Positions 3,004-63,091 of a stretch of 64,000 nucleotides of DNA are shown here, piece by piece. Below the pieces are notes generated by a model. That model was given only the letters and a program-made list of their open reading frames with translations, had not been told where the DNA came from and ran no database searches. Origin of the DNA: Cladopsammia gracilis (taxonomy: Eukaryota > Cnidaria > Anthozoa > Scleractinia > Dendrophylliidae); NCBI GenBank assembly GCA_022457155.1, contig JAJGOT010000468.1, positions 564,001 through 628,000 on the forward strand, given 5' to 3'. The number at the start of each line of letters is the position of its first letter. Positions within the stretch are counted from its first letter, which is position 1. Position numbers and translations under genes: made by a program.

Positions 3004-5094
3004 GATAACGTCACAATGACATTTCCAGTAAACTCGAGCCTTCAGTGTTTTAGAACAGCAGCACTTTCCATGGTAACTTTAAATATGGAGTCACAAAATC
3101 CTATGGGGCGTGTGTATGTAGAAAATCTCTCAAAAACGTAAAAAATCTCAGCAGTGAAAGGGTTAAATCATCTTAGAAAATGTGACTTACTTGTTATCAG
3201 TCTGCTGAGCAAACATTACATTTACAGGATTCTCAATAACTGTTTCAACTGAACAACTGTTCCTTTTTTGTACACATGAGTAACAAGGTGGCTCATGACA
3301 AACTTGCCTCACTAAGATCTGGAAAGTGTCCCCAATTAGTACTCGCTTGCTAAATACCTTTGACACTTAAATAAAGTGTGATCTTTTTTGTATTAAAACA
3401 CTTATTGCACAGCCATAAAAATTACACGTGATATCCCTTGCAGGGGTTATGGGTTCGACCAAGAACACTGATTTATACTGCTACCCTGATGTCTCTTCCA
3501 AGAGCACAAGTGCCATGTGAAAACTTGGGGTGTGACATGGAGTTGTCCCCAACTTTTCACATGCCTCTTCCACTCTCGGAGAGGAAACAACTGCACTGCA
3601 GGCCACAGTGTTGCAAAAGGCGCTACCTCATAGAGAAAACTATAGGAAAATGCCTTTATTTGAAATCTCCATTTTTAAAATTTGCCGTCTGCATGCCCTT
3701 CTCTCACCTCCCCCCCACCGCATTACTCCCAAGGACTCATGCTAACTTTAAACCTGGCCTCCTCATAAACTCCTGAAAAAGAAATGTCTGCCTCACTAAG
3801 TAGTGTCATTTTTAATTTTGTTTAGGAAATCAGGCATAAGCTTGAATTGTGATGGTTTTATACTGGAAGGTTCCCACTGAAAGCGTTTTCTTTCTTGGAG
3901 GCCTTGATGGGTTGGTTGCTGTTTGGTGAGACGTTGTCTATGAGATGGTGGTTAGGCACATCTCTGATCCTTACTGGTCTCATTCTGATTCACTATAACA
4001 GTACACCCTTAACTAATGAGCATGCTGATGTCAAGAAAGAGTAACTGAAATGGTGCCATGGCCTGGCATCCTTATCGCACTTCCTCATATCCAGGTACGG
4101 TGGAATTTCAGGAATTTCACACAAAGGGCCATGGGAAAAATCAATTCGTCCTTCCCATGCTCCCTTGCACCCCAAAAGCTCCTGCTCCCTGCGTAGAAAA
4201 AAAATCGGCCTTCTGGGTACGAGGCAGGTTGTACTCTTCTCTGGCCACAAGCGTCAAAGGCTTCTGTTTGTGCAAGAAAGGTTATCAAGAATGAAGAGAT
4301 GATTTCATTCAGTATAGCATGTTAGACGGCATGGTATATTTTGCTGGCAGTTTTAAATTTGATCTTCTCTGAGTTAAGATCTTAGTTCTGTCAACTACTG
4401 TTTCAACTTCCAAAATGAGGATTCGAGAATTTGGCGCGGTATTTTGTTAGATTGACTTTTAACACAGGGAACATTTTGTTGTTGACGTCATGCAAGCTAA
4501 CCACAGGAAACGCAAGCATAATGTTTGCATCTTGATGATATTTCAAAGTATAAGACATTGTATGGAATTTCGAACTGAACGTTTTAAGCAATGTCTAAAA
4601 TCAAAATTGCTGAATAAAGTCAATGAAACACTTATTGGTTGATTTTTCTATCTTTATACCGTGATAGATGGACTAGAAATCGCTCAAACAGCGTAGAAAC
4701 ACAATATAAAGATAAAAAACAACAACACCAATAAGTGTAAGTTACAACGACTCAATGTTCGACCTGGGGATTGAAAGGGTTAAAAACTCCTATATAAAAG
4801 TAAACAAGTTAAACTGTATTTGCAAAGACCACCGTAACGAAATAGAAGCACCGGATCCTGTAGTAAAGGATCTAATCAGCTATAAAATAATGAATCAAAC
4901 GATTTGATAAAAAAGCAAGGCTGATAAACGGTACGGGAACGACTATATTTGTAAAATATCCAATATTTCGAAAGGCACAGCTTTTCTTCTTCAGGGTCTT
5001 ACAGATAATATTACAGATAATATTACAGATAATAAGATATGCTTCTCTATCTTTACGTGCACCGTCACGATTAGTTATTATTTAACGAGTTCAA
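3004..5094. other. Unassigned stretch with small unrecognised ORFs
   Basis: Several ORFs of 60-112 codons overlap on both strands (3438-3776, 3993-4294, 4403-4591), without recognisable domains, splice signals or codon structure. TACAGATAATAT is repeated three times in tandem near 5010. No gene can be supported. Confidence 0.45.
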
Positions 5095-59161: not shown

Positions 59162-59163
59162 TA

Positions 59164-59426
59164 CAATCTTCGACAAAACTAGTTGAGACTTTTGTACACT
59201 AACGCGTGAAAACCAGACTTACTTCGAAAATCATTAAAAATATCGTGTAAAACAATGCTTAAACCCCCCTCCCCCCATTCAATGTTGTTCATTATTTTTG
59301 TTGGACTGTAGAAAAATTATTTCAACATTTGAACAACATTGTACAGGGGGGGGGGGGAAGAAATGAATGTCATGTGCGTTGAGCTTAAAATGTCGTATTT
59401 TGTCTCAACCCTTTTGTCTGAGATTG
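59164..59426 (+). repeat. Left terminal unit (MITE-like, 263 bp)
   Basis: Begins CAATCTTCGACAAAACTAGT and ends CAACCCTTTTGTCTGAGATTG, which are inverted repeats of each other; TA flanks on both sides (59162-59163 and 59427-59428). Contains CCCCCCTCCCCCC and a G run (59346-59357). It differs from the right unit by a ~21-bp extra segment (CATGTGCGTTGAGC..) and small changes. Confidence 0.92.
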
Positions 59427-59522
59427 TAGAAATGACTTTTACTGATATTTCTAACAAACGCGTGAAGTTGTGATCTCGAAAAGGTATACAGTTTTAGTAG
59501 TGTGTGAGCTGGTGATGTTGAT

Positions 59523-61094
59523 ATGGATTCCATCTGGGAAGATTGCTTGTACGATTTTTTACGTGACCAAGTGCATGTTCCCGAGTTACCATACCAACCA
59601 AAGCAGCGTCATGGACGCCACCATGGGTGGTTATTTATGGTGTTATTCTACATTTGTTTGCGTTTGTATGCACGTATGGATCTTCTAAGAAGCTATTGTA
59701 GTAACGAATCAAGCTCAGAAAGTTCAGAAAACACGACTGTAGAGGAATCTCTGCAACGGAACGAACTTAGAAGTATTTGTCTTGTAACTTACAGTCAAGC
59801 GGATATTGTGAAATTTGGTGCGCGTGAAGATTTTGCGCTCGCTGTGGTACAAGCGTTCTCTCAAGGTAGTGCGAAGGTTGTTCAGTGGTGTTGCAGTAGG
59901 GAACAGCATCGAACTTCAGGTGAACATTACCACATTGCCATAAAGTTAGATCGTAATCAGCGCTGGTTTTCAGCCAAACAATATCTCCTTCGTGAGCGCA
60001 ATATTTCAGTTCATTTCTCGAGTAATCATCACAATTACTACAGTGCTTGGCGTTACGTCACGAAATCAGACAAACATTTTGCGGAAAGTGCGAACCATCC
60101 TAATCTAAAAGAAAAAAAGAGACCTGCCACAAACTCAGCCAGCCGTTCAAGACGCCAAAGAAAGCGTTCAATCAAACCAGCAGCCATCAGTGATACTGAC
60201 AGTGACAACGATGGTCATGAATGCAACGACTCCTCGGGCCGTAGTAAACGAAAAAAGAAACGTTTTTCAGCATATGATGTATCGGAGATTATTGTGGACA
60301 ATGATATTAAAACACTAACTCAGTTACAAGCGTTGGCGTTTCAACAGAAACAAGAGGGCAAAATCAACCTTGAGGAGTTTTTACTAAGCCGCACACCTAG
60401 GTTTGTGGCTGACGTTTTGAAATCGGCATGGGAAATAGAAGGCGCCCAGGATAAATTGAATAGAGCTCAGAAAACCCGTATGGACATCCTGGAAGAAGTG
60501 AAAAATGGAGATTGTGCTGCTCGATGCAACGGGCATTGGCTTAACTGCGCTAAGGAAGTCCTTAGAAACAACAATGTGCCTGTCACTGTGTTTAAACAAG
60601 CTGTCAGTGAACTTCTTGTGAAAGGCCGCGGCAAGTACAGAAACATAATGATAGTTGGTCCTGCGAACTGTGCTAAGACATTTATTCTAAAACCACTCAG
60701 CGACATCTACAACACTTTTTGTAACCCAGCAACTGGAAGCTTTGCTTGGGTGGGCGTGGAGAACGCGGAATGTATATTTTTAAATGATTTTCGTTGGTCT
60801 GCACAGCTGATACCTTGGCATGACCTACTGTTACTGTTGGAAGGTCATTTGGTACATTTACCTGCCCCTAAGACACATTTCGCCAAAGATATAACTTTGA
60901 CAGCTGACACCCCTATCTTCTGCACAGGAAAAAGGCCACTCACATACATTAAGAACGGCGTGGTGGATGAACGCGAGACTGAAATGATGGCTGTTCGTTT
61001 CAGAGTGTTTTATTTCAATTATCAAATCCCGCGGGATAGCCAGCGCGAAGTCCCGGCGTGTGCAAAATGTTTTGCACGGCTCGTGCTGGAGTAA
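59523..61094 (+). CDS. Rep-like protein: HUH endonuclease and SF3 helicase, intact
   Basis: 523 codons, uninterrupted. N-terminal HUH nuclease: motif 1 ICLVTYSQAD (85-94), metal-binding motif 2 GEHYHIAIKL (133-142, HUH = H135-Y-H137), motif 3 WRYVTKSD (176-183) with candidate catalytic Y178 and K181. A basic, low-complexity linker (197-248) contains RSRRQRKRS and RSKRKKKR, possible nuclear localisation signals. The SF3 helicase has Walker A GPANCAKT (379-386, A in place of the usual G), Walker B CIFLND (417-422) and motif C IFCTGK (465-470). Such proteins nick and unwind DNA for rolling-circle replication in CRESS-DNA and parvo-like replicons. It is longer than typical CRESS Reps (about 300-350). 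A hydrophobic stretch lies at 36-50. Family assignment is from motifs. Confidence 0.88.
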   Translation: MDSIWEDCLYDFLRDQVHVPELPYQPKQRHGRHHGWLFMVLFYICLRLYARMDLLRSYCSNESSSESSENTTVEESLQRNELRSICLVTYSQADIVKFGAREDFALAVVQAFSQGSAKVVQWCCSREQHRTSGEHYHIAIKLDRNQRWFSAKQYLLRERNISVHFSSNHHNYYSAWRYVTKSDKHFAESANHPNLKEKKRPATNSASRSRRQRKRSIKPAAISDTDSDNDGHECNDSSGRSKRKKKRFSAYDVSEIIVDNDIKTLTQLQALAFQQKQEGKINLEEFLLSRTPRFVADVLKSAWEIEGAQDKLNRAQKTRMDILEEVKNGDCAARCNGHWLNCAKEVLRNNNVPVTVFKQAVSELLVKGRGKYRNIMIVGPANCAKTFILKPLSDIYNTFCNPATGSFAWVGVENAECIFLNDFRWSAQLIPWHDLLLLLEGHLVHLPAPKTHFAKDITLTADTPIFCTGKRPLTYIKNGVVDERETEMMAVRFRVFYFNYQIPRDSQREVPACAKCFARLVLE

Positions 61095-61167
61095 AGTACT
61101 TGTGATGATTGGAATTTTGTAGAAGCCGATTAACTACAAACTATGAACAGATTCTGTTAAAAAAAAG

Positions 61168-61272
61168 AACGAATAACACCACATTTTAACGAATAACACC
61201 AAACTGCACTAAAACAATAGATCAACCTTCTTATATTTCATAGTCTCCCACTGTTATTCGTTGTTATTCGTT
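61168..61272. promoter_or_regulatory. Iteron-like repeats, two direct and two inverted
   Basis: AACGAATAACACC at 61168-61180 and 61188-61200, and the inverse GTTATTCGTT at 61253-61262 and 61263-61272, with ACATTTTA/TAAAATGT also mirrored. They lie between the 3' ends of the two convergent genes. The arrangement could bind Rep as origin iterons or act as a bidirectional 3' end. No canonical TAGTATTAC nonanucleotide stem-loop was found. Confidence 0.5.
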
Positions 61273-61696
61273 TAAAATGTGTCCATTTCCTTCTGTTAAT
61301 CGTGTAAATATGTAGCAATTGTGTTCTTAAACTTTTTCACGGAAAAAGATAACACAACCATGTATTTCAAAGTATTATAAATAGACATTTATTGTCGTCG
61401 CGTTACGTTATTGTTTAACACTGTGTCACGCGCGAAACATGTTACGTGACGTACCCATGATTAACGTTACATTGCTTTCAACATTTTTCAGTCCGCATTT
61501 TTTTTTCTGTACAATGTAAAATTTTCCTTAGAATGAGTTGATTATTAGTATTTTGTACGTTCACCTTTACTTTTTATAATCGCTTCCATGCGACCACTCA
61601 TTGTGTCAATAATTTTATCAATAATATCTGCAGGGAAGTTGTACATAGTTGTAATTACGCGCGTGGCAAACTGTTCATATGTCTCGTGTGTAATAT

Positions 61697-62674
61697 TTAG
61701 TTTAGTTTTAATGCTTGCTTACGTAGTTCCATTTTTATCAGATTAAAGAAATTTTCCACAGCATTTACGTCAGGCGAACGTGCTGGTATAAACAACTGTT
61801 TTGCCCTTTTCCGACGCAACACTCGGCGGACCAGCCCCGAATTTTGATTTGAGACGTTATCTTGTATGAATAATCTTGAGCCATTCTTGCCCGCCTTTAT
61901 AAACATTGCGTCCAAATTCTCTTCCAGAAACTGCGCAAATGAAGCACCGTCAAGTCCTTCGTGTTCACTGCATTGAATGACTCCCTTTCCATAGGAAATG
62001 GCCACCATTAGTCTTAAGACCCGCCCACCACTACCCTCCTTCGATCCTTTAGCAGTGCACCCTTGCTTCAGGCCCTCGCTTCTTTTACGCCACACTCTTC
62101 CTTTTGGAGCACGCGCTTGATCTGCTGGATTTGTTTTGTAGTAGAAACTAACACCATCAAGAAAAAACGCAACTTTCTCTTTCCAAACATCACCAGAGTA
62201 TTTTTTCTTCATGTCTTTTGCAAAGAGTACGCGCTTGCGCAAATCACGCGCTGACATCAATCCCTTCTTTCGCGCTTGAAGGTAAAAATACCCCTTCCTA
62301 TTCAAAAATCTACGGACAGTTCGGTCGCTGACCTTGTTTTCTGGCACTCCGGCTTGTTTCATTAGTCGTTTCGATGAAAGCTGCCCCTCTTGCTTCCTTA
62401 ACACAGCCAAACTTCGTAGCAATTTGCGTTCATCACGGGGGCATAACTTCCTTGGTCTACCACCAAAACAACATCTTCTTTTTTGTCCCTCAGATAAAAA
62501 TGATTCGTTTCGAATCCTATACAAAGTAGCTCTTGAAACATGGCATTTCTTCACGTTGTCTTCAGTTTTAAAAGCTTTATCGCGAGCTAAAAAGGCAATA
62601 TATGCCCGTCTCTTTGGCTCAATAGCGGCTGAGAATACCATGTTTTTTTCGCACATCTGATCAAAACACTGCAC
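61697..62674 (-). CDS. Tc1/mariner-type DD34E transposase, 3' end frameshifted
   Basis: 325 codons. N-terminal helix-turn-helix DNA-binding region with VSRATLYRIR (47-56), a GGRPRK linker (71-76), a second HTH around SSKRLMKQAGV and VSDRTVRRFLNRKGY, then the DDE catalytic core: D173 in FFLDGVSF, D272 in LFIQDNVSNQNS, E307 in SPDVNAVENFFN. Thirty-four residues separate D272 and E307, i.e. DD34E. CTAAA is tandemly duplicated near 61697-61705. After it the minus strand stays open for about 50 codons in a different frame, so a small insertion has probably removed the normal C-terminal tail. The catalytic triad is upstream of the break. It would recognise the terminal inverted repeats and integrate at TA. 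Confidence 0.88.
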   Translation of the reverse strand: MQCFDQMCEKNMVFSAAIEPKRRAYIAFLARDKAFKTEDNVKKCHVSRATLYRIRNESFLSEGQKRRCCFGGRPRKLCPRDERKLLRSLAVLRKQEGQLSSKRLMKQAGVPENKVSDRTVRRFLNRKGYFYLQARKKGLMSARDLRKRVLFAKDMKKKYSGDVWKEKVAFFLDGVSFYYKTNPADQARAPKGRVWRKRSEGLKQGCTAKGSKEGSGGRVLRLMVAISYGKGVIQCSEHEGLDGASFAQFLEENLDAMFIKAGKNGSRLFIQDNVSNQNSGLVRRVLRRKRAKQLFIPARSPDVNAVENFFNLIKMELRKQALKLN

Positions 62675-62852
62675 TAATTGGCTAAGCGGTTATCTGTGAC
62701 GCGCCAAAAAATGTTATTTATTGTTCTCATTGAGGATTTCATTTAGAACCAAAGACTTCAAATCAGAATACCAGTTGAATGTAATTAACTGCCGGACTAA
62801 TAGTTAAATAAAACAATGTTTCACTGAGATAAAATAAGTTTGGTTGTTTCTA

Positions 62853-63089
62853 CAATCTTGGACAAAACTAGTTGAGACTTTTGTACACTAACGCGTGAAA
62901 ACCAGACTTACTTCGAAAATCATTAAAAATATCGTGTAAAACAATGCTTAAACCCCCCTCCCCCCATTCAATGTTGTTCATTATTTTTGTTGGACTGTAG
63001 AAAAATTATTTCAACATTTGAACAACATTGTACAGGGGGGGATAAGAAATGAATGTCGTATTTTGTCTCAACCCTTTTGTCTAAGATTG
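62853..63089 (+). repeat. Right terminal unit (MITE-like, 237 bp)
   Basis: Begins CAATCTTGGACAAAACTAGT and ends CAACCCTTTTGTCTAAGATTG, flanked by TA at 62851-62852 and 63090-63091. Nearly identical to the left unit from GACTTTTGTACACTAACGCG through AACATTGTACAGGGGGG. Same orientation as the left unit. Confidence 0.92.
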
Positions 63090-63091
63090 TA

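What the first reader, a model, noticed from the sequence alone, without database searches (positions are those of the whole stretch)
59164..63089. A Rep-type replication gene and a Tc1-type transposase in one TA-inserted element
The sequence shows an intact HUH+SF3 Rep-like ORF and a convergent DD34E transposase ORF between outer inverted repeats, inserted at a TA of a 37-bp minisatellite that continues on the far side at the next expected base. Rep proteins belong to rolling-circle replicons and DD34E enzymes to cut-and-paste transposons, and I do not know of a described family combining the two. It could replicate as a circle and spread by integration.
Basis: partly seen in the sequence, partly recalled or inferred. 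Interest (0 to 1): 0.93.

Follow-up and report, generated by a model that had tools for sequence, protein, structure and literature searches.

The report
Transposon carrying its own DNA replicator
A family of mobile DNA in what looks like a coral genome joins a cut-and-paste transposase to a virus-like replication protein with its own predicted replication origin, so it probably copies itself as a circle and then inserts single copies or tandem chains back into the chromosome.

Summary
The element spans 59164-63089, carries a HUH+SF3 Rep gene and a DD34E Tc1-type transposase, and sits at a duplicated TA. In the source genome 70 of 82 scored Rep copies have the transposase convergently behind them. 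(1) The ends are near-identical DIRECT-repeat units (U, about 185-295 bp), each with its own inverted repeats and a hairpin whose stem words recur in 9 U examined. (2) Ten clusters are head-to-tail arrays, mostly with period core plus one U (3689 here); the five with both ends read have one target duplication each. (3) The gap between the genes holds lineage-specific iterons: 54 hits in 13 gaps, shuffle maximum 7. This looks like a Rep origin. (4) Insertion is at C-NN-G, mostly CTAG, in 17 of 17 sites with both ends read. U-less array junctions carry Tc1-type footprints. Best reading: a capsidless rolling-circle replicon using a Tc1 transposase as integrase. Circles were not observed, and unequal crossing-over could also build the arrays. 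A degraded truffle element with Rep plus transposase is already in print (PMC3198968).

The parts
59162..59163 (.). left target-site duplication TA inside the minisatellite (site C-TA-G)
59164..59426 (+). terminal unit U1: TIR CAATCTT.. / ..GATTG plus central hairpin
   Evidence: direct repeat of 62853-63089
59264..59357 (.). hairpin of U1 (C-rich tract, CAATGTTG, loop, CAACATTG, G-rich tract)
   Evidence: CAATGTTG in 8 of 9 and CAACATTG in 8 of 9 U examined
59523..61094 (+). Rep ORF (HUH endonuclease + SF3 helicase); conserved start probably 59676
61127..61303 (.). putative Rep origin: iterons CGATTAAC 61127, ACGAATAACA 61169 and 61189 (+), and inverted copies 61252, 61262, 61294 (-)
61541..61696 (-). 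out-of-frame C-terminal part of the transposase gene in this copy
   Evidence: homologous C-terminus in another frame; relatives about 363 aa
61697..62656 (-). Tc1-type DD34E transposase ORF (319 aa; likely start at 62611)
62853..63089 (+). terminal unit U2, direct repeat of U1
62953..63039 (.). hairpin of U2
63090..63091 (.). right target-site duplication TA

Best explanation
A family of capsidless mobile elements, probably a rolling-circle replicon that uses a Tc1-type DD34E transposase as its integrase. SHOWN by sequence: chromosomal form U-core-U or (U-core)n-U; Rep and transposase convergent in the core; one dinucleotide target duplication in C-NN-G per insertion or array with both ends read; array junctions that lack U and keep 3-4 footprint-like bases; lineage-specific iterons between the gene ends; purifying selection on both genes between lineages. 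INFERRED: (1) the transposase excises U-core-U, and sometimes U alone; (2) recombination between the two direct U repeats, or replication, gives a circle with one U; (3) Rep nicks at the iteron origin and makes head-to-tail concatemers by rolling circle; (4) the transposase cuts at the outer ends of any two U in a concatemer and pastes the segment at CTAG-like sites. One U in the circle thus supplies both ends of the next insertion, as a single template supplies both LTRs of a retroelement.
For: Linkage: 70 of 82 Rep matches, contig-length coincidence, mirror tree. Ends: direct-repeat U at both ends in 7 of 9 window-family copies mapped besides the window (C867 and C408 show only the right one) and in all 6 single or dimer copies of other lineages mapped. 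U-to-U distance = core + one U: 3689 window, 3711 C1401, 3752 C838; array periods 3684-3688 in part of C782, 3737, 3752, 4130, 4153, 4160. Ten head-to-tail Rep arrays among 53 clusters, no opposite-strand neighbour within 6 kb. Five arrays (C1467, C260, C1052, C1337, C751 dimer) are bounded by U ends with one duplication each. Target 17 of 17 C-NN-G with matching NN. Footprints TTTCTA-CTG-TAGAAA and TTTCTA-CATG-TAGAAA in C782. Both U of one insertion share variants absent from the other 23 U aligned: C345 three, C476 one; in the C751/C838/C1255 family 0 mismatches within against 2 or 7 between insertions. Iterons: 54 hits in 13 intergenic regions, shuffle mean 1.8, max 7; 0, 0, 1, 0 in the rest of four elements. 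Catalytic residues: H135 78/79, H137 79/79, Y178 79/79, K181 78/79, Walker K385 79/79; DDE 38/38, 38/38, 37/38. pN/pS 0.23-0.35 between lineages with S sites near saturation; dN 0.25, dS 1.9 for window-C1401 Rep.
Against: No circle or circle-junction read could be examined. Unequal crossing-over between direct repeats can also build and homogenise arrays: in C1121 all three inner junctions lack U and carry the same CATG footprint while the U at the one outer end fetched is kept, which fits in-place amplification at least as well. In the window family the two U of an insertion differ by 1.1% on average (8 insertions) against 1.4% (sd 0.6%) between insertions. The compact direct-then-inverted iteron layout is clear in 8 of 13 regions; in C571, C112, C1198 and C678 the hits are dispersed and C1052 has one. 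The motif was derived from the same data; the unbiased 8-mer test was clear (at most 3 of 500 shuffles as good) in 5 of 13 regions, borderline (5-8 of 500) in 3 including the window (8), and not significant in 5. The 13 regions include two near-duplicate pairs. No nick-site nonanucleotide was recognised. Between close copies pN/pS rests on few changes and ranges from 0.14 to 2.0. Pattern-based scans found no relatives in IMG/VR or GTDB contigs.
Confidence: 0.7

Rival explanations
1. A cut-and-paste composite transposon flanked by two U units whose arrays and matching ends arise in the chromosome by unequal crossing-over and gene conversion; Rep does something else, for example replicating only after excision or aiding copy-number gain, and no rolling-circle stage is needed.
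For: C1121: three inner junctions with one identical footprint and an outer U kept. C782: 7 of 8 Rep rows share one TAG stop and transposase rows share lesions. U1/U2 of window-family insertions are only slightly closer than average.
Against: Rep catalytic residues are kept, both genes are under purifying selection between lineages, and origin-like iterons recur, so replication initiation seems selected. Arrays occur in several lineages at independent sites, the five with both ends read each having one duplication. Private variants are shared by both U in C345 and C476.
Confidence: 0.2
2. Parvovirus-like rolling-hairpin replication: U acts as an ITR (it folds on itself, with TIR stem and inner hairpin) and Rep, whose fold is nearest AAV Rep68, resolves the hairpins.
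For: Best PDB fold match is AAV Rep68/Rep40. U folds as a nearly complete palindrome with a conserved hairpin.
Against: The ten arrays are head-to-tail, whereas rolling hairpin gives head-to-head and tail-to-tail intermediates (general knowledge). Iteron hits lie between the gene ends, with 0, 0, 1 and 0 in the rest of four elements, U included. No capsid gene.
Confidence: 0.07
3. An endogenised CRESS/parvo-like virus that happened to pick up a Tc1 element or two MITEs; the association is incidental.
For: Rep is of viral type. U alone looks like a MITE, and six solo copies exist.
Against: The same gene order and U-core-U plan in lineages at 51-69% Rep identity; mirror trees; U is not an abundant MITE, 27 of 33 units adjoin a core; both genes under purifying selection.
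Confidence: 0.03

Closest known systems
Geminivirus-like transposon of Tuber melanosporum (Liu et al. 2011, PMC3198968; section 8 read)
   Same: One element with a Rep-like ORF, transposase ORFs and TIRs (37 bp); many recent copies.
   Different: ORFs reported interrupted or truncated and no obvious target duplication; the section read names no transposase family and mentions no direct-repeat end units, arrays or origin. Its Rep is called geminivirus-like; here the fold is nearest AAV Rep/papilloma E1. Sequences were not compared.
Teratorn (herpesvirus fused with piggyBac; review PMC10175614, passages seen)
   Same: Same logic as its proposed origin: a transposon inside a concatemer-forming replicon lets a unit flanked by two transposon copies integrate.
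   Different: 180 kb herpesvirus with piggyBac. Here 3.9 kb, DD34E Tc1 transposase, HUH Rep, no capsid gene.
IS630-Tc1-mariner transposons (DD34E/Tc1, e.g. Sleeping Beauty)
   Same: DDE_3/HTH domains, DD34E, TIRs, mostly TA duplications, footprints of the 2-nt type (footprint type recalled).
   Different: Carries a Rep gene and iterons; ends are whole direct-repeat units; strong C-NN-G target; tandem arrays.
CRESS-DNA viruses and parvoviruses (HUH+SF3 Rep/NS1)
   Same: HUH and SF3 motifs and folds; iterons as in CRESS origins (general knowledge).
   Different: No capsid gene in the window copy; chromosomal with its own transposase; nick site not identified.
Helitrons (features recalled)
   Same: Eukaryotic mobile element with a HUH protein and presumed rolling-circle step.
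   Different: SF3 rather than SF1/Pif1-type helicase, target duplication present, separate DDE transposase.

Membership tests
IS630-Tc1-mariner (DD34E) | DDE_3 catalytic domain with DD34E triad | tested here: met
   DDE_3 6.1e-12; D 38/38, D 38/38, E 37/38; 34 residues between in 38/38
IS630-Tc1-mariner (DD34E) | TA target-site duplication | tested here: met
   dinucleotide duplicated 17 of 17; TA in 12, TG 2, TT 2, AA 1
IS630-Tc1-mariner (DD34E) | cut-and-paste excision footprint | tested here: inconclusive
   CTG or CATG left at 5 U-less array junctions (3 of them identical); read from junctions, no excision assay
CRESS-DNA virus / RCR replicon | HUH endonuclease with single catalytic Tyr plus SF3 helicase | tested here: met
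CRESS-DNA virus / RCR replicon | iteron-bearing origin with a nick-site stem-loop | tested here: inconclusive
   iterons present; conserved nick sequence not found
CRESS-DNA virus / RCR replicon | capsid gene | tested here: not met
   no third ATG ORF above 79 aa in the window copy
CRESS-DNA virus / RCR replicon | circular replicating DNA | not testable with these tools
   no reads available
Parvoviridae | NS1/Rep-type helicase | tested here: met
   Parvo_NS1 in 34 of 79 members at E up to 0.1 (best 3.6e-7)
Parvoviridae | VP capsid gene | tested here: not met
Helitron | insertion without target duplication | tested here: not met
Tuber geminivirus-like transposon | sequence relatedness of Rep or transposase | not tested
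   no sequence in hand

The most novel reading that the evidence does not exclude
A separate class of eukaryotic mobile element: an autonomous rolling-circle plasmid of animals, with its own iteron origin and initiator, that has adopted a DD34E transposase as integrase and a once-per-circle end unit, so that concatemers of any length become transposons. It alternates between a free replicating stage and a CTAG-targeted chromosomal stage, and its arrays seed tandem repeats.
Probability: 0.6. Interest if true: 0.93.

Novelty: new variant of a known kind. Interest (0 to 1): 0.88.

Why it matters
It couples two mobile-DNA strategies usually kept apart, rolling-circle initiation and DDE cut-and-paste, in a small multi-copy family with many open genes. 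It shows how a cut-and-paste element could gain replicative amplification and how a replicon could gain integration. It supplies a concrete case for the concatemer route proposed for Teratorn, and a source of large tandem arrays. The lineage-specific iterons make the Rep-origin code testable across about eleven lineages within a single genome.

Tried and rejected
Pattern-based scans for relatives in IMG/VR and GTDB contigs confirmed none. Two exact hits of the 18-base TIR in IMG/VR are about what I would expect by chance (my estimate, no control run) and were not followed. PHROGs gave only weak matches for the transposase and none for Rep.

Chance nesting of MITEs was rejected. U as the Rep origin was considered because of its conserved hairpin, and dropped as first choice because the iterons lie between the gene ends and not in U. 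Coral CMITEs (PMC2872659, first of four parts read) are described there as piggyBac-related, so not the same. A nonanucleotide nick site was looked for by eye in the loops and not found.

The first TSD script scored 14 of 17 TSD and 13 of 17 C..G because it caught a wrong CAA or TTG at some sites; the corrected script gives 17 of 17 for both. Left out of that table because an end is missing, truncated or not fetched: C867, C408, C1408, C782, C818, C1121, C501. For C1326 the left U and flank are duplicated and one of the two copies was used.

Ten paper searches (one search was a rejected argument) listed no described Rep + Tc1 family that I could recognise from titles and abstracts; the one Rep + transposase element found is the truffle one. 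PMC6668415 was seen in passages. That is a statement about those searches of an open-access library only.
Full report
Observation. The window holds a 3926-bp element, CAATC...GATTG at 59164-63089, between duplicated TA dinucleotides inside a 37-bp minisatellite that resumes in phase. It carries a 523-aa Rep ORF on + and a convergent 319-aa transposase ORF on -. No other ATG ORF exceeds 79 aa, so there is no capsid gene in this copy.

The ends. The two ends are not simple inverted repeats. They are two direct-repeat units, U1 59164-59426 and U2 62853-63089, each with its own ~28-bp inverted repeats and a central hairpin. Start-to-start distance is 3689 bp, the size of a circle made of the core plus one U.

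Genome. The window lies in an 878-Mb assembly. I do not know the species; the two informatively named protein relatives among the 120 listed are from the corals Acropora millepora and Porites evermanni. The Rep search scored 82 of 815 candidates, all matching; 63 of the 82 rows show no in-frame stop. 70 of 82 have a convergent transposase match within 3 kb, median gap 607 bp (115 of 126 transposase rows used). Of the other 12, C288 does carry a transposase with a deletion by nucleotide match and two lie at contig starts (C782:927, C751:1018). Conversely 45 of 115 transposase rows had no Rep in the truncated list; the one of these checked (C771) encodes a Rep at 43% identity. Linkage is also seen in the public protein collection: 13 contig lengths shared between the top 120 of 696 Rep and top 120 of 667 transposase relatives, null mean 1.9 and maximum 6, so about two may be chance; five shared lengths above 5 kb, null mean 0.01. 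For these 13 pairs plus the window the distance matrices correlate (r 0.62, 0 of 20000 permutations), with some discordant placements.

Architecture across lineages. Of nine other window-family copies mapped, seven (C345, C181, C537 twice, C476, C756, C288) are U-core-U, some with internal deletions; C867 and C408 show only the right U. Six more distant copies (C1401, C838, C1255, C1408, C1326, C751) have their own U pairs, 96.9-100% identical in five and 87-88% in C1326, with the same core order. Ten clusters of Rep are head-to-tail arrays of 2 to 8 copies; 43 are single; none has an opposite-strand neighbour within 6 kb. Periods are constant to a few bases in most arrays, but C782 has steps of 3423-3424 and 5300 beside 3679-3688, and C1121 3445-3501. 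Arrays C1467, C260, C1052 and C1337 begin and end at U ends, as does the C751 dimer. Genome-wide the window U gives 34 rows, 33 units by my count: 27 adjoin core sequence, two of them beside a transposase remnant on C1380, and 6 are solo.

Insertion and excision. In 17 of 17 insertions with both ends read the dinucleotide next to the ends is duplicated (TA 12, TG 2, TT 2, AA 1) and sits in C-NN-G. The inner junctions of U differ by lineage: GA/TC, CA/TG or TA/TA with other neighbours outside the window family, but C-TA/TA-G in the window family. So C and G come from the target at least outside the window family. Of six solo U, five have TA/TA and one TG/CA, all with C..G. In the C782 array two inner junctions lack U and keep 3 or 4 bases, TA-CTG-TA and TA-CATG-TA. 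In C1121 all three inner junctions read GGA-CATG-TCT although the U at the one outer end fetched remains. CA plus TG is what filled-in 2-nt ends of CAA..TTG termini would leave (inference).

Origin. The intergenic region between the gene ends holds repeats in direct orientation followed by the same repeats inverted. This compact layout, with 40-53 bases between in the seven regions measured, is clear in eight of 13 regions. The word differs by lineage: ACGAATAACA (window), ACGATTAACA (C1401), ACGGTTAACA (C838), ACGGTTCACA (C1408), ACGGTCTACA (C1467, C1270), ACGGTCTACC (C1337), ACGATTAACC (C260). In C571/C112 (ACGATTCACC) and C1198/C678 (ACGATTAACC, ACGGTTAACC) the repeats are dispersed, and C1052 (ACGAGTCACC) has one hit. 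The common pattern ACGRNYNACM, derived from these data, hits 54 times in the 13 regions; dinucleotide shuffles give mean 1.8, maximum 7. It hits 0, 0, 1 and 0 times in the rest of four elements and 4 times in 58 kb of window background. An unbiased 8-mer test was clear (at most 3 of 500 shuffles as good) in 5 of 13 regions, borderline (5 to 8 of 500) in 3, the window among them, and not significant in 5. That iterons mark Rep origins in CRESS-DNA viruses is general knowledge, not a result here. U also holds a conserved hairpin: CAATGTTG in 8 of 9 and CAACATTG in 8 of 9 U examined, between C-rich and G-rich tracts; its role is unknown.

One template for both ends. In C345 both U share three variants, and in C476 one, that none of the other 23 U aligned has. 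In the C751/C838/C1255 lineage U within an insertion show no mismatch (one gap in C1255) while insertions differ by 2 or 7. This fits a stage with a single U per molecule, or gene conversion. Against it, in the window family as a whole within-insertion differences average 1.1% against 1.4% between insertions.

Selection. Between lineages pN/pS is 0.26-0.35 for Rep and 0.23-0.35 for the transposase, with synonymous sites near saturation; for window against C1401 Rep, dN 0.25 and dS 1.9. Between close copies the counts are small and the ratio ranges from 0.14 to 2.0. The lineage comparison says both genes are maintained.

Mechanism. The best-supported reading is an alternation between a circle U-core replicated by Rep at the intergenic iterons and chromosomal U-core-U or (U-core)n-U forms inserted by the transposase at CTAG-like sites. 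The circle is inferred.

Novelty. A broken truffle element with Rep and transposase ORFs and 37-bp TIRs was described in 2011 (PMC3198968), and the concatemer-plus-transposon route was proposed for Teratorn (PMC10175614, passages). What I did not find in print in the ten searches made is a diversified family with open genes, direct-repeat ends, lineage-specific iterons, CTAG targeting and tandem integration.

Noticed in passing
L069-L071 (C1121 array): Three inner junctions lack U and carry one identical CATG footprint, while the U at the one outer end fetched is kept; points to amplification of a U-less core inside the array.
   Followed up: partly
L024-L026 (C782): 7 of 8 Rep rows in the array share the same in-frame stop and transposase rows the same lesions, so a defective copy was amplified.
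   Followed up: partly
inner junctions of U, e.g. L040, L043, L049: Inside the repeat unit U is flanked by a few extra inverted bases (such as TCAGA/TCTGA) that are absent at outer ends.
   Followed up: partly
L013 5142-7152: A 2-kb insertion in the Rep gene of the C867 copy with long inverted arms (712-bp alignment, 82%), a foldback-type element.
   Followed up: no
L067 (C281 solo U): Solo U with TG on the left and CA on the right, not a direct duplication.
   Followed up: no
L023 3376-3546 and 7462-7632: 171-bp direct repeats, 100% identical, immediately outside the two U of the C1408 copy.
   Followed up: no
L029 2059-2650 and 2955-3544: Left U and its flank are duplicated (592 bp, 99%) in the C1326 copy.
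   Followed up: no
C771:834557-843694 and C1342:165173-174355: More distant transposase arrays (periods about 4094 and 4122); C771 also encodes a Rep at 43% identity (L053).
   Followed up: partly
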